NCBI GenBank assembly: GCA_964036195.1
Contig: OZ038456.1
Span: forward strand, 3,100,001-3,164,000
Direction: 5' to 3'
Length of the DNA: 64,000 bases
From: Sphaerolaimus hirsutus
Taxonomy: Eukaryota > Nematoda > Chromadorea > Monhysterida > Sphaerolaimidae
Shown here: positions 25,818 to 64,000 of the stretch, piece by piece
Layout: every line of letters begins with the position of its first letter
Position numbering within the stretch: position 1 is the first letter of the stretch
The notes under the pieces: model-generated
Told to the model about the DNA's origin: nothing
Database searches by the model: none
The model's input: the letters and a program-made list of their open reading frames with translations, nothing else
Position numbers and translations under genes: made by a program

Positions 25818-25900
25818 TTTTGATTTTGTTTCACATCAATTTGCCGAGATTGGCTGAGATCAAATTAAATTAAATTTAATTTTTATTCTAGTTTCGGGAG

Positions 25901-26998
25901 TGTGTAACATTATCGTAAAATGTAAAAATCTTTAATATTTAAGTTGACGTTCTTATGTTCGCTTTTATATTTAATTAATTCAATTATTACGATTCCATTC
26001 ATATTTACATTCCAAGTTTAACATCTTCACATTCACCATTTAATATCTCAAGCGATGTTGTTTACAACGTGCGCTTCACATCGCTCACATATTTAGATCT
26101 TAGTCATTGCTCACATTCCGCCACATTTCCTTGACAAGCAGCACGCAAATACGCCGTCATGTTTATGTTAAGCGGCGGGCCCGCCCCGAGTGGGGGGCCG
26201 GGCCCGCGCGCCATTTCAAATGTTGTCTGGCTTGTCTCACATTTTCACTATCTTGCCAGTTTAGCTCGCTTTTCATCGGAGAAGCGAGCGGGCAAGGATT
26301 GAAATTTCACAATTGGAAATGTTGGGTACAAATCGGAGATTAGAGCCGACCGATTGGCGCCAAACCAATCGCCATCGGTCTGGCCCTTAAAAGCCGATTT
26401 CACAGCTAAAATCGGCAGTGTTTGCAACCTCGTCAACTTCACACGAATCTCTTCCTAGGATCTAAATAAGCGCCGTAGTCACTTTATTAAGTCGCTTGTT
26501 TTTGGTGCTAAGTTTAACGCTTGGTGCTTTAAGTCACCTCAGTGCTTTATTTCACACCTGCGCTGTTTAAGGTGCTTTATTCACAACCGCGCCACTTAAT
26601 TGTCGCCTTTTGTCGTAATTAAGTGCCTTCTTTAAATTGCCTTATTTCTCCGGTAATTAGAGCTTCTTTTACGTTTTATTTAAGTAATTAATTTAGTTGT
26701 AAATTAATTCCTTTGTTTACGTATAATTTTATATATATTTTATTTACACTTATTTCTTTGTATTTAATTGTCTAAATAAAAACGTTCGTCAAAACCTTTG
26801 GTAAACAATCTAAATTTGCTTCACACTAACTCACGTCAATTCACTTCAACTCAACTAATCACATTTGATAAAATAACGGAACGTCAACTAGAGACGACGC
26901 TTCACGTCAACTTTCACTTGTTCACATTTGTCCTCTTCCTCGGTTAGGAATAGGAGCTGGTTCACAAGTCACTTCAAGAAGTTCCGTATTATTTTACA
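25901..26998 (+). repeat. BEL element 3' LTR
   Basis: 1098 bp, same ends as the 5' LTR; AATAAA at 26775-26780; followed by target duplication CTTTC at 26999-27003. Only a weak purine tract (TTTCGGGAG) precedes it. Confidence 0.97.
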
Positions 26999-47746: not shown

Positions 47747-49667
47747 TGTAAGAGCGTTTTTACGATGGGAAAAACACCACCCCACAAAATTTTAGACAAA
47801 CAAATGCAATAATAATTCACGGAACGTAAACTACTATGTATTTTGTAAACTAAATTTGGGCAAACTTTCTCAGACATTACGGCGGCTTTTCGACGGCAAC
47901 GGGGACTGCATGGCATGCACAGCCCTGCAGTGGGCTGCGCAGTACCCCGTCAGAGCACTGCATCGCAAGATCGACGCCGCTACCTGGGCTGACCGAGTTC
48001 GCCTTGTTTTATAGTGGTTGTAGTGCTCTGCACAATTTCGTTTCCTTACCCCCCAATTTTAATTACTATTTTCGTGCGCCAAATCTATTTAAGTCAATTT
48101 AGCTAGGTTATGTCTAACTTAGGTGTAACTGCATTCCACATGGCATAAGGTGAGAGGGGAATTTCACATTTTTCACTTTGAAATGCCGCGGCGCGGCGTG
48201 TGGCCGCCTTTGGGCTCGCCGGCACACTGTTGTGACTCTCTGGGCGGTCTAAAGCACATTCTACCCTTTACTTACCTGTGGGCAGAGGCGGAGACTGACG
48301 GCTGATAGGTAGGTGGCGACCGGAAGCCAGGAACAATGAATTTCACTCAAAAAATACAAAAGCACTGTTCCGCGTTCCTCCCCATGTTGACTAGATTGTC
48401 GTGCGTCATCTAGTATCGGTGGGTGGTAGGAACAGCTTCTGATAACGCCCCAAGTGACAAGTCGCAGTCCAAAAAATACTTTTCCGCCGCCCTAGCATAA
48501 ATATCTCCTCGCGCTCGGAAGGGTGTGGCCATCGGGCTGAAACCTTTCTCACGGGCGTTAGCTGACCGGATAGTCACAATAGTGGGTCGCGGGACTGGAG
48601 GTGATAAGCACTTCGCGCCCGCGAGCATTCTCTAGCTACCGTAACTAATGAATACAAAACCCCCAAACAAAGTTTCCATGTGACATGTAGAAACTATTGT
48701 ACAGATCGTTTCACGCCAATGCCTTTCATTCCCACGAGCTTAATTAATCGTTCTGTATCTTAATTAATTAACATTAATTGTAAGCTTGTGTTAGCTGTCT
48801 AATTATTTAGCTTAAATTGCTGTGTTGGATTATGATGCCGTAATTGCCTTTGTACATACTTTGTTCATTCTGTCTGTGTAAAAATGCGTTGCACTGCATT
48901 GTTATTTTAGGTCGTTTTATATTAAGTAGGGATTTGTAGGTAATTATGGAAGTGAGTAATTGTTGCACCGAATAAGCTTTTAACTTCTAGGCTTAGCCCC
49001 ATGTCGCATGAAGCTTTTTAATTACTTTTGTTAGCTGATATTAATTAGTACTCTTTTTATAAGCAGTTGCGTTACGTACGATTTTACTAAGTGCTTACAT
49101 CAGAGCTTATGTGATTTGAAAGTGATTTTGTAACTTCGCAATGTTATGTTCTTTTTGCTTTTTATTCAGGTCAATTATGGTAGTCTTGATTGCCTTATAA
49201 GTAGCCGAAATTGTTTTTTCCAACAACTTCGTCGATGCGACGTAAGCTAATTTTGCTTCTACTCTGCCGCTACTGTTCTTCCATCGCCAAAAAAATAAAC
49301 TCTCTTCTCAACCCAACTTGGACCCCCTTTTTGTATTGGCACTAAGTACTAACTTTTTCCCTTAGTTAGCTAATTAACAACTGCTCTAATTACCGCGCTG
49401 CTTATGCTGAGTGTAAGTGCTGTGCGTGCTGCGGGAAACGGAACAGCGTGAGCCACCGAGTGGTTCATCGCACGTTCTGAAAAACCTACCGTCTTCGGAC
49501 ACGTTTCCTTAAAATTTACAACACGCATTTATACCCTGGACCTCCGGGCCCAGTGCAGTGCACTGCAGCGGCAAGCGGCCGGTGAAGTGGGAATAGAGGG
49601 AAAAGTGCGGTAAAAAACCTCGTGAATCGTGTAATCGGAAAACAGTTGAATACACGGATTCATGACA
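47747..49667 (+). repeat. Giant element 5' LTR
   Basis: Starts TGTAAGAGCGTTTTTACGAT (same as 63848); the end is placed at GATTCATGACA, just before the primer site, giving TG...CA and about 1.92 kb. The right edge is inferred since the 3' copy is incomplete. No real ORF; a GC-rich patch lies at 47880-48000. Confidence 0.8.
49195..49299 (+). promoter_or_regulatory. LTR core promoter and poly(A) signal
   Basis: CTTATAAGTAG at about 49194-49204 resembles a TATA box; AATAAA at 49294-49299 is a poly(A) signal. Together they would put the U3/R border near 49225 and leave about 350 bp of U5. Confidence 0.45.
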
Positions 49668-49669
49668 AC

Positions 49670-49690
49670 TTGGTAGCAGACGCGAGTGGT
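49670..49690 (+). other. Primer-binding site of the giant element
   Basis: TTGGTAGCAGACGCGAGTGG directly follows the LTR; TTGGTAGCAGA is a sequence I recall at the leader start of many Ty3/gypsy elements. The tRNA was not identified. Confidence 0.6.
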
Positions 49691-49776
49691 TAGCTTAATT
49701 CACTTCAGTGAACGGTGCGGCGCCTGATCAACGCCAAGCCGTTAAGTGATAAGTAACAAACGATCTGTCGCGCCGG

Positions 49777-52700
49777 GTGGAAACGCTGCGGTCAGGAGGG
49801 CCAGCGTCGATCCCAGGGTCAGTTGAGGAAGTGTGGAGAGCTGCAGAACAGCTACAGAAGCGCACGCGCCGAGAAGCGGCTTTGCGCAGGGCACAGCAGA
49901 CTGCGGACGCGCAGGACGCTGAGGTTGAACAGGTAAGAGTTGAAGCAGGTGCGCAGGAAGCGGAAGCGGAAGCCGAGCGCGCACAGGAAGCAGCGACTTG
50001 GACCAGACGCACAGAGGATAGTACTCCCGTCGTCCGGCCAGTGCTGCAATTTGGAATTGCACGTGCAGGAACAGGCGGCAGCCGTTGGGATACGCCGGCT
50101 TGCGCGCCAGGTGCGCTACCGACTGGGGCGGCTCGACGAGCGTCCAGTGGAGGCACAGAAACAGAACGCCCACCAGATAGTCCGCTCCTGCGACCCGACA
50201 GGCCAGTAAGTGCTGAGCCCGGGCGAGAGCAGCGGAAATCAAGTAAGTGGGGTTTATTTCGACGACCGTGGGGAAAAAGCGGCCGTAGCTCCCCGGTGTC
50301 GACAGGGTCTGGATCACAGGCTGATTCAGCAGGGTACGCTGGTGAAGACGAGCCCGTGAGTTCGTCTGCATACCAGCGTAGAAGTGGTGAGACTTCCGTA
50401 AATCTAATTGACACCCCAGTAGCGATCCCAGATATAAATATTGAATTTCCCTCGTTAGCCGAAGAGCTCGAAGAGGCGGAAAATTCATTGGGGGAGCTTC
50501 AATTAAGTGCCCCGCGAAGTTCTTCCACACCACGTGAGCTTGCATCTGCGCAAGGCTCGATTGAAAGCTGTGTCTCTTCGAACAGAGCACGGCGCAGAAT
50601 CGTAGGACCGTCTCCCATAAATCAAAGTAGAATGACCAGCACCCCACCCCCAGGTTCGAGTGTGACGACCGCGCCGGCCACGCTCACAACGGTGACGACT
50701 ACCCCGGCGGCGGCCAACCAAGTGACGCCGGGCCAGATCCTGACGGCGGCGACCGCGGCGGACCCGGGCAGGGAAACCACTGGGTACACTAGAGAAGGTT
50801 GGACCTTCCCGGGCATGATACAGCTATTGCACCAGTGGTCTGGGGAACTTAACCGCGCGGGACCAGCGGCGATTTCAGTCAATGCTTCCACAGCAGATAA
50901 AAATAAGCTACAGGCCATTAGGCTAGGTTTAAGCATGTACACCAGCGTAGGTAACCCCAGCGCGCTGGAGCAGGCCACTACTCAATTTTTGGCATTTTGT
51001 TCTAACAGGGGATTAATTCCACCCATAGCATCGGCAGCTAATGCTACCTTGGGCGCGGGAACGGCCCCTGGGAACACAACCGCGCAGACTGTGCCCCCGC
51101 CGGCGAGTGTGAACGGATCAGCGGGTGGCAGTGGAGCGGCACCTGCGCCTGCAAACGCTACGGCTCAACCAGCTACCAGTGTAATCAATTTGGCGGGACA
51201 GCCGGGTCCCTCCTCTCCAGGATCGTCAGGATCGCTCTCACCTGCACCTAATCCTACGGATCCAGACTATCTGGCGCAGCACCAGGTGCCGCACGGCACG
51301 GCCGCTACGCTGACCGCCCTGGCTACGCAGTGCGATGCATTCACTGGAAGGGCTGACAAGAGTTTCAAGGATTGGAGACGTAAGTGGGATATTTTGTGTG
51401 ATGCGCTAGGTGTTTCAATGCGCTCTAGGCAAAAGTTGCTGCCTATCTTTTTACAAAAGAATGCCAATTCTATCTTTGTAGCTAGAAGGCGGGAACTGCG
51501 CGCGCTCGATTACAAAGCCATGATGGATCGTTTGGAAGAATTGTTTGCAAACCCAAACGCCCAGCATCATGCACAGCGCGAGTTTATTGAGTCAACCCAA
51601 AGTCCCACTGAATCTGTGCTGGATTGGGCAACTAGGTTGGAACGTGCAGTAAAGCGCGCATATCCAATGCTGCATTCCGCCCAAAGGGAAGGCATGTGCA
51701 TCACTAAGTTTCACCAGGGGTTGGACAAGGACATTAGGCGCAACCTGGCGGTGCACGCCAATATAAGCTGGAAGGAATTAGTTGATAATGCGCGCATGCA
51801 AGAAAGCTACAAAAACCTTGAAACCGTTCAGAAGGAACATGCGAAGTCGGCCAGCGAGATCGTCGCCGAGACGTCGAACCAGGTCATGGAGCGCATCATG
51901 GCCATGAACCTGCACCCCTCGGTCCAGTCGATGGAGGCAGAGGGTGCCGAGAATGCGAAGCTCAAGGCCAAGGAACGGGCGCTCGACGAACGACAGAAAA
52001 AACTCGACGCCCAGGAAGCTAAGATGATGGGTGCACCGCGCCCGAGGCGTGAGTTACCGCCCAAAAGGTTTGAAAATGGATGTTGGGAATGTGGATCTCC
52101 TGATCACTTTCGCTACCAATGTCCAAATAAGCCCCCTCCCGAGCCATCTGCCGGCAACGATAGCAATCAGCGGGGCCGCGGAGGCGACTTTCGTGCGCGC
52201 GGTAGAGGTGGCGGCCGAGGGCGAGGCCGTGGACAGGGAGGACAATATCCACAAAACTTTGGGTATCCAGGTGGATGGGTACCGATGCAATTAAGTCAAC
52301 CTATGACCGTGCCTTCTTCGCAGATGATGCAGCCTGTGTACGTCCAGAGCCAGCAGCCCGCGGCCATCGGATGGCACCCGCAGCCACCACCGGCACAACG
52401 GCCGTTGGAATCGCAGCAAGGCCAGAGCAGCAGCGTGCTGCTGTTGAACCCGACGACAGTGACACAGGTAGGTGAATGCACTTACAAGGCCGTGACCGAG
52501 TCATCGCCGTCTTATGCTAGAATTCTCTTCCATCATGATCAACTATTGACATTGCAAGGGCTGGAACCGGAAGCCCCTGACGAGGAGGAGATGGAGGAGC
52601 AACCTGTAGCTAGCCTTCAATGTAAAATGCACGCGCTCATGGTAGATAGGGAACAGTGGATTAGCCACTGGGCGTATCAACGCGAAGCCACGTCAATCCT

Positions 52701-55700
52701 ATTTCGTACCAGTTGGTTAGATTATCTGCGGCGCACTGCAATGCATGATCTGAAGGATGAAGATTGCGTGGTGCTCCCAGACTGTTGCCCGCATGACGAC
52801 CACAATGACACGCTTACTAGAATCGAGTGGAGGGTTTTGCGTGACGCCCCATTAGACCCATTCCTAAATGAGCCCCCTGTGATTTTGTCCCCGCGTACGT
52901 TTTCGAGCACATGCGTTGATAAAATGGCCGAATTTAGAGACAAAACGTCCGCAGTGCCTCGCCAGCGAGCGTATTCTGAGCCACCGTATAATAATCAAGT
53001 CTTTGGCGCTTTGTTTACAGTTTTCACCATCGCCGTGGTGATGGCGTGCTTGAGCTTGATGCCGTTGGCGGGGGCCACGACGATGCCGGACACGCCACTG
53101 CTGTGCAGCGACCTGACCGATCATTACGACTTGTACACCTACCCCGACCTGCCTAATTGCACCGCGTTAGTCGATTCTGCTGTGTCGTTGACTAAACCGG
53201 TTCCCCTGAAACTTACTATTTACAAACGCAATATGGTAGAGTATCGTGCCACTGCGTATCGATGTGTAGCGGCCACGCGGTCGGCTCATACATACCAGAA
53301 CTTCTGGGGTGACGTCACTTTGGAACATTTTGACTCGCAGCCGCGTGCGGTAGATCCCTCGGAGTGTGAGAGCATGATGAAGTACCATAAGTGCAACGAC
53401 GGCGCGCTTCAGCCAGTGGACGAGCTGAGCAACGCATGGGACACTCAATACCCGACAAACGTGAGTTACTCGGGGCACGGGCTGTACTGTTGCAGCTGGT
53501 TAATTACCAAGACCCCGCAGTGTGGGTTGTTTAAGGGAGATGTACGCATGCGCTACGGCGCCAAGGTTATGCAAAGTACGTTAGGAGAAGTGTCAAAGTG
53601 TAATTACGAGGAGGGCACCTGTACCCTACCCGACGGTAGCCAATTAGTCTGGAAACCAAACCCAAAGGCTGAATGCCCCTATGAGAAATGGCAAGAAATA
53701 GCTGGGTTAATTAGACAAGATATTTGGCTCGCGCGTGATCACACTTTGGCATTGTCATTTCGAGCAAAAGAAGAAATCATTTCATGTGGTGAAAAACTAT
53801 GGAAATCAGACCAGGATATTGTTGTGGCGCCGTTCGAAATCCCCCCAATTAGGTATGTGCGGGAAAAGCGTCGCGCAGCACGCCCCGGATTTGGCGTAGT
53901 GGACACCGGTCACTTGGCCGCAGCGATGCAAGCGGTGTACGAGACATCTGAGCAAACTATGCGTGCACAGGCCGTGTCTACTTGTAGGCATGTGCAACAC
54001 TTTCAGGAACTTCTTCGCTTAGCCATGACCGAGCACCCGACGACCACGGCGCGCTGGTACATGCGCGACAATGAGATATTGGCCAAGGCGGCGCCAGACG
54101 GATTTCTAGTGCATAAGTGCTTTGCGGTAAAGACTTATCAGTTGGGTACCGAAACAGGTAAAGGCGCGTGCCACGCTACGGTCCCAATACGAATGAAATT
54201 GCATGGACAGAATGTGACCTTGCATTTGGATACAATTACAAATGCCCTTCTGTTCCAGCCGGTTATGGGAACGTGCACAAATCGCCACAACCGTGTGTTG
54301 AAATTGCATGGGCAGTGGTACAAGTATTTACCTGAGAAAGGCGCCCTGGAACATATCCCCGTTTACAACACCCACAGTTTCCCACACAGGTGGCAACTCG
54401 AACGACCGACGGACGTGCACCATCAGATCTTTGCCGCAACGACAATGTACAATTTGTCTGAGCTGCTGCCGACCACCACGCTGAACGACGTGTGGCACTC
54501 ATACGCGATTGTGCGGCGCGTGCATGGAATGCCGACGCATGCGGTTGATGGCAGTTTACAATCGCATCGATTAATGGCCAGGTCAATGGTAAGCGTGGGA
54601 TTTTGGGATTTTGACGCCTTAAGGTCATGGCTGCAGATATGGATTTACCTGGTGTGCGCCATAGTGACTTGCCAGTATTTATTAGCAGCTCTGTTAGCCG
54701 CCGCGCCCCCGGCAGCTACGACGCTAATTGAACGAGCGCGCCGACGACTGCGACGGGAGTCGAGGCCGCTAATTACCAGACACAGAGACGCAGGTAAGCG
54801 TAGCTTTATGAAAAGCTATGACGGCCGATTGACCGTGTTGAATCCGACAACAGGTGCGTCCGAGCGCGCATCAGATGACACGGTAACGGTACAGATGTTT
54901 CCATCAATTGAATATAATCACCAATTAGAAATGGCGGAAATTTCCATGAGCCCATCAGTGGATAGAATCAGAATGATTACGCTATCAAAAGATGAACAGG
55001 AAAATATAAAGTCTGTCGTCGCGAGGCGGAACGGGCCTGTGCATGTCTACTACAGTCCTGCAGTCCCCGTGTGCATGGACGGCATCATGTACCACCGATG
55101 TTTGCTGGACACCGGCGCCATGCGCTCGTTATGCAGCAGAGACGTGTTCCAGGAGCATCGACATGGACATGACGCCGTTGAAGAAACTTCTCCCATTTCT
55201 CACATGCGATGCGCTGCGGATTCTAAGCTAATGATAATTGGTCAGTTGGAAATGCCCATTGATATAGGGGGACACACGTTCCGTGTTGTTTTTCAAGCCA
55301 TCGATGGGCTGGTTGACAATTTAATTTTGGGCGCGGACGTGCTGCGGCACATGATAATTGACATGCCCGCGCGCCTCTTAAAAATCCCCTCAGTAGGCGT
55401 CAGCATTCCCTTTGATAACCACAAGCCGGACGTGCAGATTCGTGCAGTGTTTGCATTAGTCACAGCGGCTACCGAAATCAAGGCAAGGCATGAAGCAATG
55501 GTGCCGGTGCGCCTATCAGCTCCAGTTAGCTACCGCACATTTACGGTCACTGGGCTGGAATCTGTAAACTTGAAGGATGGGGTAGTTGCCGCATCTGCAG
55601 CATATGAAACAAGTGACGAGGTGTTTCTAATGAGGGTCGCAAACGTGCGTGATCAACCGGTTACCTTGCAGATGGAACAAAAAATCGGCTTGGTTGAGCC

Positions 55701-56283
55701 CGTCGATTGTGTTCTGAAAGTCAAAGCCGGCGACCCCCCGGAGGAATGGATACGGCAGTGCCGCGCCAACGAAGCGACAGAGCCGGTATCTTCAAGCGTT
55801 CCAGAGAAGGTAATTGAAGACCACTTAGGTGAGCCATTGCATGTGAAATGTCCAGATGGACACGAAATGGAATTTTCTGTGCCCCAAACATTGTCGGAAA
55901 ATGAGCGCAAGGAACTTGCAGCCGTACTTTTGAAGCACAAAGGCGCCTTTGCGAGACACAAGTACGACATAGGGTACAGTGAATTAGTCGATTATCGACT
56001 GCAATTGACTGATCGAAAACCGATTGCGTGCCGCATGTATCGGTTGAGCCTGGATGACCAGCAATACTTGGAAAAGCACCTGCGCTGTCTAATTGAACAC
56101 GACATAATTGAAACAAGCACAAGCCCATACTGCGCTCCCACATTAGTTGTTTCTAAACCTGATGGTTCTAAACGCATGGTCATTGATTACAGGCGATTAA
56201 ACTTGGTTTTGCATGCGCCGCAATTTCCATTGCCGAGGCTGGATGACACCGTGGATGCACTCAGCAACTGCAAGTTTTTTTAG
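49777..56283 (+). CDS. ORF1: Gag, Env-like glycoprotein, protease and RT start in one frame
   Basis: About 2168 codons; the frame is open from 49753 but has no ATG until 50632 (MTSTPPPG, good context), so 49777 is a GTG and not a trusted start. Order (residues from 49777): Ala/Glu/Arg-rich coiled region (1-70), capsid (about 500-695, WDILCDALGVSMRSRQKLLP), zinc knuckle CWECGSPDHFRYQC (769), RG-rich box, then an Env-like unit: hydrophobic signal/anchor (1077-1101), Cys-rich ectodomain, basic REKRR cleavage-like site (about 1361), second ectodomain half with NVT and NLS sites, membrane anchor (WLQIWIYLVCAIVTCQYLLA, 1617). Then protease LLDTGAMRS (1777) with ILGADVL, and RT to residue 2168. Env between nucleocapsid and protease is highly unusual. 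Confidence 0.9.
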   Translation: METLRSGGPASIPGSVEEVWRAAEQLQKRTRREAALRRAQQTADAQDAEVEQVRVEAGAQEAEAEAERAQEAATWTRRTEDSTPVVRPVLQFGIARAGTGGSRWDTPACAPGALPTGAARRASSGGTETERPPDSPLLRPDRPVSAEPGREQRKSSKWGLFRRPWGKSGRSSPVSTGSGSQADSAGYAGEDEPVSSSAYQRRSGETSVNLIDTPVAIPDINIEFPSLAEELEEAENSLGELQLSAPRSSSTPRELASAQGSIESCVSSNRARRRIVGPSPINQSRMTSTPPPGSSVTTAPATLTTVTTTPAAANQVTPGQILTAATAADPGRETTGYTREGWTFPGMIQLLHQWSGELNRAGPAAISVNASTADKNKLQAIRLGLSMYTSVGNPSALEQATTQFLAFCSNRGLIPPIASAANATLGAGTAPGNTTAQTVPPPASVNGSAGGSGAAPAPANATAQPATSVINLAGQPGPSSPGSSGSLSPAPNPTDPDYLAQHQVPHGTAATLTALATQCDAFTGRADKSFKDWRRKWDILCDALGVSMRSRQKLLPIFLQKNANSIFVARRRELRALDYKAMMDRLEELFANPNAQHHAQREFIESTQSPTESVLDWATRLERAVKRAYPMLHSAQREGMCITKFHQGLDKDIRRNLAVHANISWKELVDNARMQESYKNLETVQKEHAKSASEIVAETSNQVMERIMAMNLHPSVQSMEAEGAENAKLKAKERALDERQKKLDAQEAKMMGAPRPRRELPPKRFENGCWECGSPDHFRYQCPNKPPPEPSAGNDSNQRGRGGDFRARGRGGGRGRGRGQGGQYPQNFGYPGGWVPMQLSQPMTVPSSQMMQPVYVQSQQPAAIGWHPQPPPAQRPLESQQGQSSSVLLLNPTTVTQVGECTYKAVTESSPSYARILFHHDQLLTLQGLEPEAPDEEEMEEQPVASLQCKMHALMVDREQWISHWAYQREATSILFRTSWLDYLRRTAMHDLKDEDCVVLPDCCPHDDHNDTLTRIEWRVLRDAPLDPFLNEPPVILSPRTFSSTCVDKMAEFRDKTSAVPRQRAYSEPPYNNQVFGALFTVFTIAVVMACLSLMPLAGATTMPDTPLLCSDLTDHYDLYTYPDLPNCTALVDSAVSLTKPVPLKLTIYKRNMVEYRATAYRCVAATRSAHTYQNFWGDVTLEHFDSQPRAVDPSECESMMKYHKCNDGALQPVDELSNAWDTQYPTNVSYSGHGLYCCSWLITKTPQCGLFKGDVRMRYGAKVMQSTLGEVSKCNYEEGTCTLPDGSQLVWKPNPKAECPYEKWQEIAGLIRQDIWLARDHTLALSFRAKEEIISCGEKLWKSDQDIVVAPFEIPPIRYVREKRRAARPGFGVVDTGHLAAAMQAVYETSEQTMRAQAVSTCRHVQHFQELLRLAMTEHPTTTARWYMRDNEILAKAAPDGFLVHKCFAVKTYQLGTETGKGACHATVPIRMKLHGQNVTLHLDTITNALLFQPVMGTCTNRHNRVLKLHGQWYKYLPEKGALEHIPVYNTHSFPHRWQLERPTDVHHQIFAATTMYNLSELLPTTTLNDVWHSYAIVRRVHGMPTHAVDGSLQSHRLMARSMVSVGFWDFDALRSWLQIWIYLVCAIVTCQYLLAALLAAAPPAATTLIERARRRLRRESRPLITRHRDAGKRSFMKSYDGRLTVLNPTTGASERASDDTVTVQMFPSIEYNHQLEMAEISMSPSVDRIRMITLSKDEQENIKSVVARRNGPVHVYYSPAVPVCMDGIMYHRCLLDTGAMRSLCSRDVFQEHRHGHDAVEETSPISHMRCAADSKLMIIGQLEMPIDIGGHTFRVVFQAIDGLVDNLILGADVLRHMIIDMPARLLKIPSVGVSIPFDNHKPDVQIRAVFALVTAATEIKARHEAMVPVRLSAPVSYRTFTVTGLESVNLKDGVVAASAAYETSDEVFLMRVANVRDQPVTLQMEQKIGLVEPVDCVLKVKAGDPPEEWIRQCRANEATEPVSSSVPEKVIEDHLGEPLHVKCPDGHEMEFSVPQTLSENERKELAAVLLKHKGAFARHKYDIGYSELVDYRLQLTDRKPIACRMYRLSLDDQQYLEKHLRCLIEHDIIETSTSPYCAPTLVVSKPDGSKRMVIDYRRLNLVLHAPQFPLPRLDDTVDALSNCKFF

Positions 56284-58996
56284 CAGTGCCGATATTAATC
56301 AGGCTTTCTATAACATTGCACTGCATCCCGACGACAGACACATCACTTCATTCCGTAATATTTTTGGTCAATTCCAATTAAAGAGATTACCTATGGGATT
56401 AAAATGCTCACCAAGTTTGGCACAAAGGTGTTTTGAGCTTGCAATGGCGGGATTGATTCATCGCAATGTGCTATTGTACATTGACGACTTGTTAATTTAC
56501 AGTCAGGATTGGAAAACCCATTTGAGTGACATTGGCCAAATTTTGGATCGATTGATCAAAAATAACTTCAAAATTAGTCCCCGTAAGTGTTTTTTCGCAC
56601 GCATTACCGCGGTAAAATTTCTGGGCTTCATGATCGGCCGTGAGGGCATTTGCATTCCCATGGACAAACGCAATATTATCTCAGAATGGCCCCTCCCGAA
56701 AACTGTCAAGGAAGTCAAAGGGTTTTTGGGAGCAGTGGGATTTTTCAGACGCATGATACACAGGTGCGCCGAAATAGCAGTGCCGCTATCGAATTTGACA
56801 CGCACCGGTCCGCGCGAGAACTACGATGGAAACGCGCCGGTAGATCTCAACGACAATCCTGAGGCTCTGAGAGCCTTCTTCCAATTAAAAGAAATACTAT
56901 TACACAGCCCCTGTTTGCAATACCCGAACCCAAATAAAACGTTCATCGTAATTACAGACGCGTCACAAATTGCGGTCGCTGGAGTGCTGGTGCAGCGAGC
57001 CGACGAAAAATCTGGACTGCATGCGTGCGCGTTCTACAGCCGGAAGTTGACTGAGGTTCAGAGCAGATGGCCCGCCATCACTCTAGAGGCTTACGCAATT
57101 TTTGAGAGCGTCCGAAATTGGCATTGCTACTTGGCGGGACGCCCCTTTGAAGTGTGGACTGATGCCAAAAGTATCCCTTGGGTGAAGAACCCCAATTTGG
57201 AGGCTACACCACACGCCGCATTGCATAAGTTTGCATTGGCCATTGCCCCGTATCAAATTACATTCAAGCATTTGAAAGGAAAATGCAATGAGCTCGCAGA
57301 TGCTCTGTCCCGAAGGCGCGATGCGCCAATAACTTTCGACGAGAAATTAGAACTTGACGAAGCATTTGAGCAATTTGCACTCATTAAAATATCACACAAT
57401 AAAACTGTCGCGACACAGACCGCAATCGACCCGTGGGATACGGTAGCTACTGTTTCCAGACGCGCGCCCATCAAGGAACCAATGAGGACACGCGCGCGTG
57501 CGAGGGCGGAGTCTGCGGCGCGTGACCACATCCCTGGGACAATGGACACGCGACAGCCGACGAACAATGGGGTGGAGCCAATTACCGGACTCACTACCGT
57601 AGGTCCACAAACAATGGCTGGTGGCCCCGCGGCTACCGAAGTGCGCGTCAACGGTTTTCACACTGATCACGTTTTGCCCCCGTTTGTCCCCATAATTGAA
57701 TTGAAACGCTTGCAGATGCAAGAAGCGTATATAGTGAATTTGATGGAAGTTTGTAAGGATGCACCTGGACAATGTGTGCCACCGTTTTTCATTGACCAAT
57801 ATGGAATCATGCGAAAAAGGGCTGAGGCTTCAATAGTACCGGGGATCAAGTTGTATGATCCTGTGTGTATTCCAGCCTCACTGTGCCCGCTAGTATTCGA
57901 ACTAGCACACAATCACCCTACAGCGGGACATCTGGGAATAATGAAAACGTTCGAAAGATTACAGGAATTTGCGTGGTTCCCAAATATGCGCCCCGAGAGC
58001 GCGCATTGGGTCGCCACGTGCCCTTTGTGTTGTGCGCGAAAAGGACTCAGGCAGTCGATGCAGACTTTGATGGCGTGCCGGAAAATCGCGCGATCTCCCG
58101 GCGATGTCATCGCAGTCGACGCCGTTGGCCCGCTGCCACGCACGCGGCGCGGGCACAAACACGTGTTGGTTTTCGTTGACCAGTGCACGCGATTTGGTAT
58201 CGCTGTTCCGGTACCCGATATCCGGCAGGATACTGTAGCATTTGCATTCTTGCTACACATTCTTCCCATATTTAGCGTACCCGGCGCCATTTTGAGCGAT
58301 AACGCGCCAAGCTTTGTCGAAGGGGCATTCAAAAGATTGTTATTGTATTTCAATACCCTTCAGCATCGCTCATTTGCGTATATGCCAAAAGGCAACGGAA
58401 TGGTGGAGCGCCGAAACGGTGTTCTGATGGAAATCGTGTCCCATTACGTGAACCAAACTCATTCCGATTGGGATTACCACTTAGGCGCCGCGGTGCATGC
58501 GTACAATACGTCGAAACACCCGGCAATGGGCACCACGCCGTACGCACTTTTGTTTGGGCGCCCAGCCGCGTCGCTATGGGAAAGAATGTTGACGCCCCCC
58601 GCGCCTGGCGCAATGCTACCCGAGTCGACAGATAAGCACGGTGAACCCACCGAGCTCGCGCAGCGTCTCTCGGCGGCGCGCAATGCGGCGCATACCGCGC
58701 TTAGGAATGCTCAATTGAAAGAGCAATACTACGCCAATCGCCGCGCCCGCCATTTGAATTTGAAGCCGGGCCAAGCGGTTCGTATTTTCACTCCGCGCTT
58801 GACCGATCAGACCGGCCCTTGTAAAAAATTTGCTGCTTTCTTTTTAGGCCCCTACGAATGCATTCGCTATGCTCATCCGCTTGTAACTATTTATAATGAT
58901 ACTAATGATAAGATTTATGTAGTGCATGCGGATCGCTGTAAACCAACGCTTGAAAACATTATCCCCACCTGTACGCAGAATCTCGGCCCTACTTAG
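56213..58996 (+). CDS. ORF2: RT (continued), RNase H and integrase
   Basis: Coding in practice from 56284, where RT continues from ORF1 (SADINQAFYNIALHPDD) after a T-run. RT catalytic YIDD (about 56477), then RNase H (VITDASQIAVAGVL; AFYSRKLTEVQ; LADALSRR end), integrase zinc motif (HNHPTAGH...CPLCC), D-D-E core (AVDAVGP, LSDNAPS, GMVERRN) with the usual spacing, and a C-terminal domain ending LGPT. Ty3/gypsy order. No Env or other domain follows integrase before the stop; the helicase starts 240 bp later. Confidence 0.95.
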   Translation: MRRNFHCRGWMTPWMHSATASFFSSADINQAFYNIALHPDDRHITSFRNIFGQFQLKRLPMGLKCSPSLAQRCFELAMAGLIHRNVLLYIDDLLIYSQDWKTHLSDIGQILDRLIKNNFKISPRKCFFARITAVKFLGFMIGREGICIPMDKRNIISEWPLPKTVKEVKGFLGAVGFFRRMIHRCAEIAVPLSNLTRTGPRENYDGNAPVDLNDNPEALRAFFQLKEILLHSPCLQYPNPNKTFIVITDASQIAVAGVLVQRADEKSGLHACAFYSRKLTEVQSRWPAITLEAYAIFESVRNWHCYLAGRPFEVWTDAKSIPWVKNPNLEATPHAALHKFALAIAPYQITFKHLKGKCNELADALSRRRDAPITFDEKLELDEAFEQFALIKISHNKTVATQTAIDPWDTVATVSRRAPIKEPMRTRARARAESAARDHIPGTMDTRQPTNNGVEPITGLTTVGPQTMAGGPAATEVRVNGFHTDHVLPPFVPIIELKRLQMQEAYIVNLMEVCKDAPGQCVPPFFIDQYGIMRKRAEASIVPGIKLYDPVCIPASLCPLVFELAHNHPTAGHLGIMKTFERLQEFAWFPNMRPESAHWVATCPLCCARKGLRQSMQTLMACRKIARSPGDVIAVDAVGPLPRTRRGHKHVLVFVDQCTRFGIAVPVPDIRQDTVAFAFLLHILPIFSVPGAILSDNAPSFVEGAFKRLLLYFNTLQHRSFAYMPKGNGMVERRNGVLMEIVSHYVNQTHSDWDYHLGAAVHAYNTSKHPAMGTTPYALLFGRPAASLWERMLTPPAPGAMLPESTDKHGEPTELAQRLSAARNAAHTALRNAQLKEQYYANRRARHLNLKPGQAVRIFTPRLTDQTGPCKKFAAFFLGPYECIRYAHPLVTIYNDTNDKIYVVHADRCKPTLENIIPTCTQNLGPT
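56274..56284 (+). other. One-base slip in a T-run inside RT
   Basis: ORF1 reads AAG TTT TTT TAG and stops. Six T instead of seven would join ORF1 and ORF2 without loss of any residue. It falls in the RT palm just before the DINQAF motif, where retroelements do not normally place programmed shifts. An assembly error, a disabling indel, or a slippage site. Confidence 0.8.
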
Positions 58997-59236
58997 ACTC
59001 TCATTGCGGTAAAGCCCTTAAGTGGCTATCGACGTAGCCACTGAGCAAATTAATTAACTGTGTTCCCGTAATTCGATTAATTCCCTCCTCACGTAAGTTT
59101 GATAAACTTGTGATCCCAAGTGTGTGTGAGTGCGGTTGTAATTCGCTGGTACACTAGTGGGCTCCGAGAGTCCACTGCAGTGCCGGTGATTGATTGTGAT
59201 TAATTGCACTCTTCCTTAAAACTTAAAAAACGTAAC
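58997..59236 (+). other. Spacer between integrase and helicase ORFs
   Basis: 240 bp without an ORF, with GTAAGTTTG (59093) and AATTAATT motifs. Expression of the helicase needs a spliced or internal-promoter transcript, or reinitiation; none can be proved here. Confidence 0.5.
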
Positions 59237-62200
59237 ATGGCCGGAAGGAGCATGGGCGCCAAACGGCAGCACAATGGCCGGCGTGCCAGCGCCGCGGGCT
59301 CGGGCTTCACGAAAGCCACCACCCAACGTGGCGAACCGGGCGCCACCATACCGCCCCCCAAGGTGGATCACCAGTGGGGTGAGAACCAGCGGCCCCCGCC
59401 GCCCGTCTACGCGAAGCGGATGTTCGCCGGCTGGGTGGACCGTGTCTATTGGAGACACGACACTGCAGACCGGGAATACTACCAAGCCCACGTGCGACTT
59501 CACGACGACGCGCTGGCCGAGCTGGCCGAGAACGACGAATGGAACGACGCCGACAACGTGTACCCGTTCTTCACCTACTCGACCAACATCGCGCGCGGCG
59601 CCCGCGACCGCCGCACGTCGGTCGTGGTGGCGCAGTACGCCAGCGTCAACGAGAAGTACGGCCCGGAGCTGCACTTGCCGCTTGTCAGACACGGTATGAA
59701 GTTTACGGCCAGGTATGTGCAGCGTTGCACTGCCAAGCCCGACTACTGGGAGTTCTTTGACATTAAATTGGACATGAACAAAAGCGCTAGCCCCCTATTG
59801 GTGGCAGTGCCCGTCGTCGTAACCGTACAGGGACGCGCCCCGGCCGACCATGAATACGACGCGCAGCGCGACGAGGTCGGCTACCAGCGCTACTCAACGA
59901 ATTGGCGGTCGCTGCGGCTGCGAGTGGCGTTCACGCCCCGTCGCTACAAGGAGCTGCCGGAGTTGGGCGCGGGCGAGCGCAACGACTGCGGCCCGGAGCG
60001 CTTGGCGTTCGCGCACCGCGAATACACCATGCCCGGCAACCCGATCCCGAGTGCAGGTATGTTGGGGATTGCACACGTCGAGTTTCACGACCTGAACAAC
60101 GACGTGTTTGACAACGTCTATTACGCCCATGCGTATGGCGTTTTCTTGCTCGAAAAATCGGCGCTGGAAGATTTTTACTTCCACGACCCCCACGAGGTGG
60201 AATTGAACCGGGTGCACCCGCCGCACCTGCGCACCAAGTACGTGATGCTGGCCGCAGCATACATGTACCACGAGTCCTTGTTGCGTTTCCGAGCGGCACG
60301 CGCCACGGCGGTGCGCGCGCTAATTGAGTGGGAAGCGACCGACGCAGGTACCAAGGCGTGCATCACGATCAACAGGCCGGACCTGGCCGACGCCGTCAAC
60401 GACGAGCAGGAGCAGATGGACGAGCAGCAGAGACGCGCGAACGCGCAAATCAACGCGCTACCCCAGCTGCTGGTCGGCGCCGGACCGATGTCGGTGCTGA
60501 CGTTGACCAAGGCGATGCCCGACGACGACAGGCCCGACCCGACGCAGCCAAAGTTGCAACTGCGAGTGGCCACCTTAGAGGTAAGTCCGGAGCGGGCTGT
60601 AATTGTGGGCAATTTGGACTTGAAATTGAGCCAGGCGGCGCTCCCGTCCGAGCTCGAGAACGGCGACTACATGGTGCGCACCACCAATGAGTCGCCCAAC
60701 TACGTGCGAACCATGCGCTCTTTGCAAGGCGCTATCGAGCGCCTGAACGAAGGTTGGAGACCGTCCAACATACGCTCGGGCAATGTCCTAAAACTGGGTG
60801 ACCAGATCGCCATTGCCATTGTGTATGATGATCGGTTGTCCGACACGTTCACCCAGTGGTCACACATCCGCGCCACAGCCGCGCCCCTAGAAGACGAAAT
60901 CCGTCAGGGCACGTCCGAAGCGCTGCTGGTGAGTAAGCCCGGCGAGTTCAAGCCGTTGGGAGGCCAGGCGAAAACCCTGGCGGCCGTTTTAGCCGCCTTG
61001 AAGCTGGCGTGGCCGCTGTTGCTCATGTGCGACTCCCCGTTCGGCACTGGCAAGACCACTGTGCAGAACCAGGTGGCGTACATGTGCTCGTTGTACTTCA
61101 ACCAGTTTAATGGTCGCCCATTCCCAGACAGTAATTCCACCCTTTCCTCCGACATCACTTCCAACGCCAAGTACCACTCCACTATCGTCACGTGCACTGT
61201 CAACTCGGCGACGGACGAGAGCGCTAGGCGCGCTGTGCAAAACATGCAGCGCACCGGCTGCGACGGCGTGCACGATGCCGTGCGCCGCCTGCTGCTGGGC
61301 CGCAAGCAGTGGTCCGAACTGCCCGCCGCACAAGTTAAGGACATGCTGCAAGAGCCCGGGTACGTCGAATATTTGAAATTGAGAGCGGCGTTCGCTGTAA
61401 GGGTGCTGAGCCCCCTGTTGGAAACCCAGGAGGTCTACAGCGACCTCGCTGTAGACGACCTGCCCGCGCTGCACAAAATAGCGCAGGACACCCCTTTCTC
61501 GGTCGCGCGGATCGACGCCCAGTGGATAGAGCTGGTAGACCAGTACTGGGCGGTGAAAACTGAGTACGAGACTGTGCACTCCATCGTCGCAGGTCCCAAT
61601 CAAACCCCCCAGCAGGTGATGAAGGCGCTCATGGAGAAGGTGCCGCACCTGGTCGTCACTGGCGAGGACGACGACGAAGAATGGGACGACGACAACGACG
61701 AGGTCGTAGCGGGTCGCACGGGCGTCGACGTGAACGACCCGGACCTCGAGGACACGGACTGGGGCCGCGTGCTGCGCAGGGCCGCCCGGAGGTACGCCAA
61801 GGGCACCGTCAAGCTGCACAAGTACGTTCTGGATTTGTTGCAGCCAGGACAGATCCACGTGACTGTCGATTCGACACATGATGTGCGCATCAAGCACATC
61901 AGGTACTGTGCCATGATAGTGGACGAGGCGTCGCTCGCCACGAACATTTCCATGGTCACAGCGTTGAACCCCGTGTCGCTCCCCCACAACGGCTTAGTCT
62001 TGCTGTTCGGCGACAGCAAGCAACTCACCCGCAAAGTTCAGACCCAGCGATGGGTTGAACCCTTCCTTAATCCCTCTCCATCTTTGATTGATGGACTCAC
62101 AGCGTCCAAAATGTGCCCCTTGCTGCGGCTGGAAACGGTCTTCCGTGGGCACCCCCAGCTGATCAACGCCAACTCGCACGCGGCGTACGAGGGCCGGCTC

Positions 62201-63241
62201 CGCCCCTACCATCAGAAATCGCCGTGCCGGGACGACAACTTGCCGCGCATGCGGGGCGACAACGTCCCGATCCCGCTGTCCACGGTCATCAACCACACCG
62301 GACTGGAGACCAAGGAGGGCACGTCGACCGTCAACGTACCCGAGCAGCTCATCGTAGTGCAGTTGGTTAAACATTTTGTCGAATTGGCGAACCAGGGCGG
62401 CGTGCCCTGGAGTGATTTGAGTCGGGCGGATGCCATTTTGGTGGTCACTTTTTATGCGGCGCAGCAGCGCGCGCTGATCGACAAATTGGCAACCGACCCG
62501 TCGTTGAAGCACTACGGGCGAGAATTCTGGGCGACTCGAGTGCTCACCGCCGACAAGGCGCAAGCCAGAGAAGCTGAGGTGACCATCGTGTCATGCGTGC
62601 GCAGCAGCGAGCCGCCCGCGCGTGACAGGTTGACCACCCAGTATTCCCAGCAGACCACTCGAGTCGGCTTCGTGGCCCAGCTGGAGCGTGGAAACGTGGC
62701 CACCTCCCGCTCGCGTTGCGCCAGAGTCGTGGTGGCCAACGTGGAGACCTTGTTGTGGTCTGACTTCTTCCACATTTTCTTTTCGTATGAATTCGCTTCG
62801 GCTGGTCTTTACCAGTACCACGCAGAAAAAATCTGGGGATCCAGGATATGGACCTGGTCGCCCGACTGGAGACCACAGGCCCACTGCCCCGAGCACCAGT
62901 ACGACGATGACGACGAAGCCGCCCAGACCGAGCTCGCCCAACCGGACGTCAATATGGACGAGCCCGTGGACGTACAAAACGCGCCCCAGCCGGCGGACGA
63001 GCCGCTGCCGTACGACCCCACGGACGAGGTCGAGGACATCGCCAGCACCTCCGACGGCGATGGCGACGACGCCACGTTCTCCGCACCGGAAGAGGAGGCG
63101 CCGCTAGCCCCCGACGGCGACATCGAGCCCGATGAGCCCGTGGCGCTCGCCGCGCCGGCGCCGGCTAAAGAGGACGACATGCAGCCCGAGGTTGCCACCG
63201 AAGAAGACGTGCCGATGGAGGGCACCGACGAGGGAGTTTGA
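59237..63241 (+). CDS. ORF3: Upf1-like superfamily 1 helicase carried by the retroelement
   Basis: 1334 residues from ATG at 59237 (AACATGG; the upstream frame start is TTG only). Motifs seen: Walker A SPFGTGKTT (about 602), Ia TCTVNSATDESA, motif II VDEAS (about 896), III FGDSKQL (about 924), IV-like LETVFRGHPQLI (about 967), a VVTFYAAQQ block (about 1071), V LTADKAQAREAEVTIVSC (about 1102), VI NVATSRSRCARVVVAN (about 1153). DEAS and GDSKQL with this spacing are typical of Upf1-like SF1B enzymes that unwind RNA or DNA 5'-3' using ATP. Residues 1-590 are unrecognised; about 290 residues lie between motifs I and II, including an acidic EDDDEEWDDDNDE stretch; the tail is very acidic. All key residues are present. 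Not Helitron: no Rep domain, and it lies between integrase and 3' LTR. Confidence 0.9.
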   Translation: MAGRSMGAKRQHNGRRASAAGSGFTKATTQRGEPGATIPPPKVDHQWGENQRPPPPVYAKRMFAGWVDRVYWRHDTADREYYQAHVRLHDDALAELAENDEWNDADNVYPFFTYSTNIARGARDRRTSVVVAQYASVNEKYGPELHLPLVRHGMKFTARYVQRCTAKPDYWEFFDIKLDMNKSASPLLVAVPVVVTVQGRAPADHEYDAQRDEVGYQRYSTNWRSLRLRVAFTPRRYKELPELGAGERNDCGPERLAFAHREYTMPGNPIPSAGMLGIAHVEFHDLNNDVFDNVYYAHAYGVFLLEKSALEDFYFHDPHEVELNRVHPPHLRTKYVMLAAAYMYHESLLRFRAARATAVRALIEWEATDAGTKACITINRPDLADAVNDEQEQMDEQQRRANAQINALPQLLVGAGPMSVLTLTKAMPDDDRPDPTQPKLQLRVATLEVSPERAVIVGNLDLKLSQAALPSELENGDYMVRTTNESPNYVRTMRSLQGAIERLNEGWRPSNIRSGNVLKLGDQIAIAIVYDDRLSDTFTQWSHIRATAAPLEDEIRQGTSEALLVSKPGEFKPLGGQAKTLAAVLAALKLAWPLLLMCDSPFGTGKTTVQNQVAYMCSLYFNQFNGRPFPDSNSTLSSDITSNAKYHSTIVTCTVNSATDESARRAVQNMQRTGCDGVHDAVRRLLLGRKQWSELPAAQVKDMLQEPGYVEYLKLRAAFAVRVLSPLLETQEVYSDLAVDDLPALHKIAQDTPFSVARIDAQWIELVDQYWAVKTEYETVHSIVAGPNQTPQQVMKALMEKVPHLVVTGEDDDEEWDDDNDEVVAGRTGVDVNDPDLEDTDWGRVLRRAARRYAKGTVKLHKYVLDLLQPGQIHVTVDSTHDVRIKHIRYCAMIVDEASLATNISMVTALNPVSLPHNGLVLLFGDSKQLTRKVQTQRWVEPFLNPSPSLIDGLTASKMCPLLRLETVFRGHPQLINANSHAAYEGRLRPYHQKSPCRDDNLPRMRGDNVPIPLSTVINHTGLETKEGTSTVNVPEQLIVVQLVKHFVELANQGGVPWSDLSRADAILVVTFYAAQQRALIDKLATDPSLKHYGREFWATRVLTADKAQAREAEVTIVSCVRSSEPPARDRLTTQYSQQTTRVGFVAQLERGNVATSRSRCARVVVANVETLLWSDFFHIFFSYEFASAGLYQYHAEKIWGSRIWTWSPDWRPQAHCPEHQYDDDDEAAQTELAQPDVNMDEPVDVQNAPQPADEPLPYDPTDEVEDIASTSDGDGDDATFSAPEEEAPLAPDGDIEPDEPVALAAPAPAKEDDMQPEVATEEDVPMEGTDEGV

Positions 63242-63847
63242 GTAAACCCAGGACATTTTTGTTTTGCAAGTTTTTTGAAAGTTTTTGGAAACTAATAACG
63301 TAATGGAAACTATAACCAACAGTGAAACAAACAAAACAATTAACCAAGTATCTCGAAATCACACACCAAATAGTTTCCAAGACGTTCGCTGCGGCACCGA
63401 ATGGCCGCATTTTGTTCCCCCGAATTGACGAACGTAACCGCCGCCCCCAGTTGACCGTCCAAAATTGGCACTTTTCTGAATAAAAAACAAAGTTTTTTGT
63501 AAATTTGAAAAGAGCAGAATATTTTTGAAAATGGAAATACCTCCAGAACCCAATTGGCAATTCCATTATAAAGTCACGACTGCAAAAGGCAGGGCAGTTG
63601 ATTAACTCCCATACCGTTCTCAGCTTATTATTGCATTTCTGTAGTTGCCAGCCACGTTTCGGAATTTGATTTTCGACTGTGAAATACACGCAAGCCATTT
63701 TGCATGCAAACAACCTCTTTTTGAAAATTTCGAAAAGATGAACAACTTTTATATTTAACGAAAAATTTTGTGCATGCAATCGTAAAAATAATCACCGGTC
63801 ACACCCCAATAGTTTAGCCAGGAGGTAAACCGCAATGGCTGGTGGGT
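63242..63847 (+). other. Untranslated region before the 3' LTR
   Basis: 606 bp, AT-rich, no plus-strand ORF. A short purine run (CCAGGAGGTAAA, about 63819) and GGCTGGTGGGT just before the LTR could be the polypurine tract; weak. Confidence 0.5.
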
Positions 63848-64000
63848 TGTAAGAGCGTTTTTACGATGGGAAAAACACCACCCCACAAAATTTTAGACAA
63901 ACAAATGCAATAATAATTCACGGAACGTAAACTACTATGTATTTTGTAAACTAAATTTGGGCAAACTTTCTCAGACATTACGGCGGCTTTTCGACGGCAA
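63848..64000 (+). repeat. Giant element 3' LTR, first 153 bp
   Basis: Matches 47747-47899 base for base as far as I can see; the rest is beyond the window. Confidence 0.93.

What the first reader, a model, noticed from the sequence alone, without database searches (positions are those of the whole stretch)
47747..64000. Giant LTR retrotransposon encoding a Upf1-like SF1 helicase
Seen: a 1334-residue helicase ORF with Walker A, DEAS, GDSKQL and motifs IV-VI sits between integrase and a repeat of the 5' LTR start, so it is inside the element. Known: LTR elements carry Gag, Pol and sometimes Env; SF1 helicases occur in Helitrons (Pif1-like, with Rep) and RNA viruses (nidoviruses), not, to my knowledge, in LTR retroelements. 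The ORF is intact and GC-rich like Gag-Pol, suggesting selection. This is the best candidate for an undescribed system.
Basis: partly seen in the sequence, partly recalled or inferred. Interest (0 to 1): 0.95.

Follow-up and report, generated by a model that had tools for sequence, protein, structure and literature searches.

The report
Giant retroelement carrying its own helicase
An 18-kilobase, virus-like jumping gene in a probable nematode genome carries, besides the usual machinery, a large nucleic-acid-unwinding enzyme kept by natural selection in two separate families, which suggests that the element needs this enzyme to copy itself.

Summary
Confirmed and extended. The window ends inside one 18,022-bp LTR element: two identical 1,921-bp LTRs, TG...CA ends, 4-bp target duplication. 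Order: LTR / Gag-Env-protease-RT start / RT-RNaseH-integrase / helicase / LTR. ORF3 (1,334 aa) is a UPF1-like SF1 helicase (AAA_12, E 3.7e-23). It is no one-off capture: 49 of 49 scored Pol copies of this family (A) have it downstream, 18 of them seen only in a 501-bp slice. A second family (B) carries a homologue, 43-45% identical, inside its LTRs in 10 of 10 sampled copies (frame uninterrupted in 6). Among those ten, pN/pS is 0.09. A +1 frame switch inside RT, at a stop codon, is shared by A and B and looks programmed. The helicase's role is inferred: most likely remodelling or protecting the element's own long RNA, as HIV-1 does with host UPF1. Env in frame between Gag and Pol has a precedent (planarian Burro). 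A separate SF1 helicase gene in a complete LTR element appeared in none of my paper searches.

The parts
47747..49667 (+). 5' LTR, 1,921 bp, TG...CA
   Evidence: 100% identical to C9:3163848-3165768 (L009); TSD TAAA
49671..49689 (+). primer-binding-site-like TGGTAGC..., 3 nt after the LTR
   Evidence: sequence; family B has TGGTAGCG... at the same place; the tRNA was not identified
49777..56283 (+). ORF1: Gag (CCHC) - Env - protease - N-terminal part of RT, 2,168 codons; no AUG before residue 286
52081..52122 (+). CCHC zinc knuckle of Gag (aa 769-782)
   Evidence: motif; zf-CCHC E 0.041, under its cut-off
52993..54711 (+). Env segment in frame (aa 1073-1645): hydrophobic start, furin-like REKRR (residues 1362-1366), transmembrane segment at 1618-1645
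   Evidence: Monjiviricetes_fusion PF24664 E 1.5e-6, 26.9 bits against a cut-off of 27; family B 67% identical, E 3.6e-7, 29 bits, above cut-off
55063..55350 (+). aspartyl protease (LDTGA; aa 1763-1858)
   Evidence: gag-asp_proteas E 0.004, Asp_protease_2 E 0.023, both under their cut-offs; motif
56270..56283 (+). frame switch inside RT at UUU-UAG-C; ORF1 stops here and RT continues in the +1 frame
   Evidence: same place and core sequence in one family-B copy; ORF2 frame of 919-931 aa in 49 of 49 scored A copies, 931 in 45
56213..58996 (+). ORF2: RT C-part - RNase H - integrase (YIDD; H2C2; DD36E)
   Evidence: RVT_1 5.9e-22, RT_RNaseH_2 4.6e-28, Integrase_H2C2 5.1e-15, rve 1.6e-7, the last just under its cut-off; motifs
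59110..59237 (+). structured leader upstream of the helicase start codon
   Evidence: RNA fold z -4.22 (0 of 200 shuffles as good); the matching stretch of one family-B copy z -3.31 (0 of 200) with another sequence; stretches chosen after hairpins were seen
59237..63241 (+). ORF3: UPF1-like SF1 helicase, 1,334 aa
   Evidence: 35 scored family-A copies 99-100% identical
60926..62938 (+). helicase core of ORF3 (residues 575-1245 of the open frame)
63242..63847 (+). 3' non-coding region ending in TTTAGCC.GGAGGTAAA...AATGGCTGGTGGG (presumed plus-strand primer region)
   Evidence: same motif before the 3' LTR in family B; 266 genome-wide matches of the junction against 1 for the reversed control
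63848..64000 (+). start of the 3' LTR (continues to C9:3165768, outside the window)

Best explanation
This is a recently inserted ~18-kb Ty3/Gypsy-type LTR retroelement with a virus-type Env, of a lineage in which a UPF1-like SF1 helicase is a standing gene. Shown: anatomy, many copies, presence of the helicase in two families, purifying selection on it in family B, and a frame switch in RT shared by both. Inferred: Gag-Env-protease is made from ORF1, and RT-RNase H-integrase by +1 slippage at UUU-UAG in RT. The helicase is made separately, from a subgenomic RNA or by internal initiation behind the structured leader. It then acts on the element's own long genomic RNA, loading on it and using ATP to strip proteins and unwind structure, so that an RNA with long tracts behind early stop codons escapes decay, is exported or packaged, and can be reverse-transcribed in full. 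In effect the element brings its own version of the UPF1 that HIV-1 borrows from its host.
For: LTR pair, TSD and boundaries. Two families share helicase, Env inside ORF1 and RT frame switch (one B copy seen for these two) and the 3' junction. Helicase next to Pol in 49 of 49 scored A copies and before the 3' LTR in 10 of 10 B copies. pN/pS 0.092 among the ten B copies; variants shared by two or more copies 33 nonsynonymous against 173 synonymous, ratio 0.059. In nine of them (L040 left out) positions 1, 2 and 3 diverge 1.9, 1.2 and 8.8%, beside 6.9% in adjacent non-coding DNA and 6.1% in the LTRs. Because LTR pairs within a copy differ by only ~0.06-1.2% substitutions, most divergence between copies arose over cycles of replication, so selection acted on replicating elements. 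SF1 motif residues are shared by A and three B sequences. HIV-1 uses host UPF1 for genomic-RNA export (PMC4693258, abstract read).
Against: No biochemical or expression data. Nothing shows on which nucleic acid the helicase acts. The N-terminal ~560 residues match nothing, so its targeting is unknown. In 4 of the 10 sampled B copies the helicase frame is shortened or interrupted, so some insertions are decaying. Both AlphaFold models failed (mean pLDDT 34 and 35), so there is no structural support. The frame switch and internal initiation rest on sequence alone.
Confidence: 0.6

Rival explanations
1. The helicase is a counter-defence protein: it unwinds or shields element RNA from the host's small-RNA silencing, as proposed for viral-type SF1 helicases in insect LINEs.
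For: Published proposal with weak silencing-suppressor activity of such helicases in a plant test (PMC6338049, part 1 of 4 of the text read). The element is abundant and the insertions examined have near-identical LTR pairs. The helicase diverges faster between A and B (43-45% identity) than Env (67%) or RT (71-81%), as a factor in an arms race might.
Against: Within family B the helicase is strongly conserved (pN/pS 0.09), not diversifying. No silencing-suppressor domain was matched in Pfam, and the N-terminus matches nothing.
Confidence: 0.2
2. The helicase is a particle-borne replication factor that helps RT copy an 18-kb template or displace strands, and is not a factor of RNA surveillance.
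For: Unusual length of 17.5-18.0 kb; helicase encoded beside Pol; motif residues shared.
Against: Ogre (16-25 kb) and Burro (over 30 kb) are described in the section I read with no such helicase named (PMC6431247, section 7). ORF3 is a separate ORF, not fused to Gag or Pol, so packaging would need another signal.
Confidence: 0.2
3. The helicase is a passenger: a host gene captured once, or a nested host gene, with no role in the element.
For: SF1 AAA_12 genes exist in the host (L001, L002); 4 of 10 sampled B copies have a shortened or interrupted frame; LTR elements do capture host sequence (recalled).
Against: Present in 49 of 49 scored A copies and 10 of 10 sampled B copies; one uninterrupted 1,334-aa frame in the window copy and full-length frames in 6 of 10 sampled B copies; pN/pS 0.09; only 24-25% identity to the host genes.
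Confidence: 0.02

Closest known systems
Burro giant Gypsy-like elements of planarians (PMC6431247, section 7)
   Same: Giant Ty3/Gypsy-like element; Env-like domain in frame between Gag and Pol; extra domains; Env region with hits to mononegavirus fusion proteins
   Different: Burro is over 30 kb with a 4.9-kaa polyprotein. Its listed extras are AIR1, Smc, MATH/TRAF, BIR, BCL2-like, ankyrin, SUMO-like and dUTPase-like motifs, with a midasin-like AAA ATPase region in the Dugesia relative; no SF1 helicase is named there. Kinship of Pol was not tested.
Viral-type SF1 helicases in insect LINEs (TRAS, Jockey) and fused to Ty1/Copia pieces (PMC5563155, PMC6338049)
   Same: SF1 helicase domain carried by a retrotransposon
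   Different: Those are domains of RNA-virus type, mostly inside LINE ORFs. Here it is a separate 1,334-aa UPF1-like protein in LTR elements with LTRs, TSDs and Pol. Viral_helicase1 is matched only weakly (3 of 4 members of A1, best E 0.012).
UPF1 / NAM7 (also SMUBP-2), cellular SF1 helicases
   Same: AAA_12 core; the PDB matches are UPF1/NAM7, SMUBP-2 and an annotated 5'-3' RNA helicase-like protein
   Different: 26-29% identity over 45-51% of the compared stretch; no cysteine conserved between A and B before residue 609, so no UPF1 Cys/His domain; N-terminal region without matches
Env-bearing LTR elements with Jingchuvirales-type glycoproteins (PMC7642597, PMC10084718; search listing only)
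   Same: Glycoprotein related to Monjiviricetes fusion proteins in an LTR element
   Different: Those concern arthropods; here Env sits inside ORF1 and a helicase follows Pol

Membership tests
Ty3/Gypsy (Metaviridae) LTR retrotransposons | Two LTRs with TG...CA ends and short target duplication | tested here: met
   1,921-bp LTRs, 100% identical, TSD TAAA. Family B: LTR pairs in 10 of 10; by eye a duplication of 4-5 bp in 7 of the 8 copies where it could be judged (L034 none seen; L040 and L046 not judged)
Ty3/Gypsy (Metaviridae) LTR retrotransposons | Pol order protease - RT - RNase H - integrase | tested here: met
Ty3/Gypsy (Metaviridae) LTR retrotransposons | Closest Pol relatives are Ty3/Gypsy | tested here: met
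   420 proteins at E <= 1e-20 among 8,000 scored; the 120 listed carry RT and RNase H Pfam domains, nearly all an integrase core too, and are 25-34% identical; names include transposon 412 and Gypsy. No tree was built
UPF1 family | SF1 AAA_11/AAA_12 helicase core | tested here: met
   AAA_12 82.5 bits (cut-off 27); AAA_11 only 23.6 bits, under its cut-off of 27; motif residues
UPF1 family | N-terminal Cys/His zinc domain | tested here: not met
   No cysteine invariant between A and B before residue 609; no Pfam match there in P0001
UPF1 family | Role in nonsense-mediated decay, 5'-3' RNA unwinding | not testable with these tools
   needs biochemistry
Viral SF1 helicases (alphavirus-like, nidovirus) | Best match to Viral_helicase1 (PF01443) | tested here: not met
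   best E 0.012 against 2.4e-26 for AAA_12
Burro-like elements | Env in frame between Gag and Pol | tested here: met
   one family-B copy
Burro-like elements | MATH/BIR/BCL2-like/ankyrin domains and an internal region of 20 kb or more | tested here: not met
   No such Pfam match in ORF1-3 at E up to 1; the region between the LTRs is about 14.2 kb
Helitrons | Rep-helicase protein and no RT/integrase/LTRs | tested here: not met
   no Rep domain matched; RT, integrase and LTRs present

The most novel reading that the evidence does not exclude
A previously undescribed lineage of enveloped, virus-like LTR retroelements that encode and depend on their own UPF1-like helicase as a third core gene beside Gag-Env and Pol. 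It would parallel large positive-strand RNA viruses, which encode helicases, and would be combined with a programmed +1 frameshift inside RT.
Probability: 0.65. Interest if true: 0.88.

Novelty: new variant of a known kind. Interest (0 to 1): 0.83.

Why it matters
Reverse-transcribing elements are usually described as using the host's helicases, RNA export and RNA surveillance (recalled). A retroelement lineage that keeps a complete UPF1-like helicase under purifying selection, with 266 matching 3' junctions in one genome, shows that such a function can become element-borne. It would make a direct test possible of whether RNA surveillance or template length limits the size of retroelements, and offers a natural counterpart to HIV-1's use of host UPF1.

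Tried and rejected
Rejected: nested host gene or one-off capture; viral-type helicase; element with a lesion-broken RT (the frame switch fits 49 of 49 scored A copies and one B copy).

Led nowhere. Two AlphaFold jobs gave useless models, so no fold search was run. Viral-contig scans with helicase and Pol found no relative. Protein search with the N-terminus: no hit at E <= 1 among 7,999 scored candidates. SL1 RNA search: no match, but it rang in no control genome either, so it is uninformative. Rfam and tRNA scans of the window were empty. Paper searches to name the host found none. A search for sister Gypsy lineages with and without helicase did not complete, nor was one for the Env family; when and from where the helicase was acquired therefore stays open. 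A third family with another 3' junction is not excluded.

First expectation corrected: I took the AAA_12 hits for copies of the window element. One search (megablast) found no DNA match and one search showed a second family. A more sensitive blastn finds patches of the helicase gene, in the rows shown at 69-82% identity, but still none in LTR, leader or non-coding parts.
Full report
What is there. The window is G000:C9:3,100,001-3,164,000 of a 348.5-Mb genome in 762 contigs. The DNA beyond the window completes a 3' LTR of 1,921 bp, identical at every base to the 5' LTR. The ends are TG...CA, and the element is flanked by TAAA on both sides. The element is 18,022 bp long and, having identical LTRs, inserted recently; I give no age because no substitution rate is known for this host.

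Coding content. ORF1 (49,777-56,283) holds a Gag with a CCHC knuckle, an Env segment with a hydrophobic start, a furin-like site and a transmembrane segment, an aspartyl protease and the N-terminal part of RT. The Env matches Pfam's Monjiviricetes fusion glycoprotein at E 1.5e-6 but 0.1 bit under the curated cut-off; the family-B Env passes it (29 bits). The protease matches are weak (E 0.004 and 0.023, under their cut-offs) and rest also on the LDTGA motif. ORF2 (56,213-58,996) holds the rest of RT, RNase H and integrase (rve just under its cut-off). ORF3 (59,237-63,241) is the helicase of 1,334 residues. Its core matches AAA_12 at E 3.7e-23; AAA_11 stays under its cut-off. The solved relatives found by sequence are UPF1/NAM7, SMUBP-2 and an annotated RNA helicase-like protein. 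In a search of 5.8 billion proteins with the core, 16 proteins reached E <= 0.001 among 7,999 scored candidates; the informative names are UPF1, and identity was 26-29% over 45-51% of the query. The N-terminal 560 residues found nothing at E <= 1. There is no cysteine conserved between the two families before residue 609, so the zinc domain of UPF1 is absent.

A family, not an accident. Pol of the window element finds 49 scored copies, 95-100% identical, 45 of them without a stop inside (2,401 candidates, so this is a lower bound). ORF3 finds 35 scored copies, 99-100% identical (619 candidates). In 34 of the 35 the matched stretch holds one TAA. In 13 of the 18 slices described below such a stop stands just before the ATG, so I take it to lie upstream of the gene; I did not check each of the 34. 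Of the 35, 31 have a scored Pol 211-245 bp upstream; four have no scored Pol. For the 18 Pol copies without a scored helicase I fetched 501 bases downstream: all 18 encode the helicase there, 87-99% identical, and in one (L057) residue 167 stands where the start is expected. Thus 49 of 49 scored Pol copies have it, though for 18 only the slice was seen. Scoring favours the best copies, so old copies without a helicase could have been missed.

A second family. A Pfam search for AAA_12 gave 150 scored places among 454 candidates. The first two look like host genes: L001 has stops inside the match, as introns would give, and both show only 24-25% identity to ORF3 in a short stretch. The other 148 score higher than the window copy and are, I think, one different family, B; I judge this for most of them by score and span only. 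Of 147 open-frame lengths that I copied from those 148 rows, 98 were at least 1,300 codons. The protein of ten sampled B copies is 44-45% identical to ORF3 (43% in a global alignment of three of them), in most over residues 36-1244, unique N-terminus included, while at the DNA level only patches of the gene match, and the LTRs not at all. In 10 of 10 the helicase lies just before a 3' LTR with a matching 5' LTR at the expected distance: nine pairs over 1.67-1.68 kb at 98.7-99.9%, and one (L040/L041) over only 1.27 kb at 98.9%. The helicase frame is uninterrupted in 6 of the 10 and shortened or interrupted in 4 (L034, L036, L040, L042). Nine give lengths of 17,543-17,567 bp (L040 left out). In one B copy, Env (67% identical) also lies in frame in the expected place and RT follows (71-81%). 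The same 3' junction occurs 266 times in the genome, against 1 for the reversed control; of the 100 places listed, 26 have the A form and 74 the B form, counted by eye.

Selection. Among the ten B copies the pooled pairwise codon differences in the helicase are 5,206 synonymous and 1,547 nonsynonymous, pN/pS 0.092. Variants shared by two or more copies are 33 nonsynonymous against 173 synonymous (ratio 0.059), single ones 101, two of them stops, against 200 (0.157). Codon positions 1, 2 and 3 diverge by 1.9, 1.2 and 8.8%; neighbouring non-coding sequence by 6.9% and LTRs by 6.1% (nine copies, L040 left out). LTR pairs inside a copy differ far less (0.06-1.2% substitutions), so most of the divergence was laid down while elements were replicating. 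The helicase was therefore needed, or at least favoured, during that time. These ten copies were not a random sample: they include five of the six best AAA_12 scorers among the 148. The binomial values treat variants as independent, which copies of one family are not; I rely on the ratios. Family A was not tested for selection.

A frame switch in RT. ORF1 ends, and RT continues in the +1 frame, at UUU-UAG-C. One family-B copy has the same core and the same switch while differing around it, and 49 of 49 scored A copies keep an ORF2 frame of 919-931 aa, 931 in 45. This looks like programmed +1 frameshifting at a slow stop codon, in an odd place: inside RT. That is an inference from conservation; no stimulating RNA structure stood out (z -0.72).

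Expression of ORF3. It lies about 240 nt behind the Pol stop. The 128 nt before its start fold much better than shuffles in A and in one B copy (z -4.22 and -3.31, each 0 of 200) with different sequences. I chose these stretches after seeing hairpins, so the z-scores are somewhat favoured; the B stem region hardly varies among ten copies, so covariation could not be tested. Internal initiation or a subgenomic RNA are both possible.

How it may work. In HIV-1, host UPF1 associates with Gag and promotes export of genomic RNA (PMC4693258, abstract read), and UPF1 is reported to stabilise HIV-1 genomic RNA (PMC6022449, start of abstract in the search listing). An 18-kb RNA with stops far from its 3' end is the kind of RNA that nonsense-mediated decay attacks (that pathway degrades mRNAs with long 3' UTRs: PMC4764554, start of abstract in the listing). 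An element-borne UPF1-like helicase that lacks the zinc domain, which in UPF1 serves regulation by UPF2 (recalled), could do the RNA-remodelling work without calling in decay. This is my preferred reading, at about 0.45 on its own; the anatomy and the standing presence of the helicase are far surer (about 0.95). Rivals are silencing suppression and a replication factor in the particle.

Known or new. Env in frame between Gag and Pol was reported for the planarian Burro element as a first case (PMC6431247, section 7 and passages read). Bdelloid LTR elements capture esterase, exonuclease and other ORF3s (PMC5408684, abstract read). Helicases of viral type occur in insect LINEs, and fusions with Ty1/Copia pieces have been reported (PMC5563155, abstract and passages read; PMC6338049, part 1 of 4 read). 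In my searches of the open library (at most 20 papers listed per search) no listed title or abstract start describes a separate SF1 helicase gene in a complete LTR element; subscription papers, preprints and Repbase entries were not searched. I call it a new variant of a known kind.

Host. Arrays of TTAGGC stand at 6 of 16 fetched ends of chromosome-size contigs; this is the telomere repeat of C. elegans (PMC12921731, start of abstract in the listing). The mitochondrial contig reads well under code 5, with genes on both strands (gene names other than COX1 recalled).

Noticed in passing
window 56270-56283; L053: +1 frame switch inside the RT domain at UUU-UAG-C, shared by family A and a family-B copy about 71-81% identical there: probably programmed frameshifting at an unusual position.
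   Followed up: partly
window 49777-50631; L039, L047, L049: The Gag frame has no AUG in its first 285 codons in A, and the short stretch seen in three B copies has none either; its N-terminus is nevertheless related between A and B at the protein level (37-40%). A leader stretch GCGCCTGATCAACGCC is shared. Initiation may be non-AUG or supplied by splicing.
   Followed up: partly
window about 14723-26200: A second LTR element, of the BEL/Pao type: 300-nt perfect repeats at 14723-15022 and 25901-26200, a 2,318-codon Gag-Pol (DUF1759, Peptidase_A17, RT, integrase zinc domain, DUF5641) and an overlapping 979-codon Env ORF matching Monjiviricetes_fusion (E 3.1e-11).
   Followed up: partly
G000:C9:24526304-24530326 and 24542434-24546456: Two family-A helicases 16,130 bp apart in the same orientation, nearly the distance of one LTR plus internal region in the window copy: probably tandem elements sharing an LTR.
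   Followed up: no
window 63808-63847; family B copies: The sequence before the 3' LTR (AATGGCTGGTGGG) is not a usual polypurine tract yet is conserved between families whose LTRs show no blastn similarity.
   Followed up: partly
G000:C762 (L031): Mitochondrial contig: COX1 followed directly by an ATP6-like frame, an ND1-like frame on the other strand, and long direct repeats at the end of the fetched piece; a gene order that might name the host's group (names other than COX1 recalled).
   Followed up: no
window 59110-59237 and L032:6919-7046: A strongly folding leader before the helicase start codon in both families, with unrelated sequences.
   Followed up: partly
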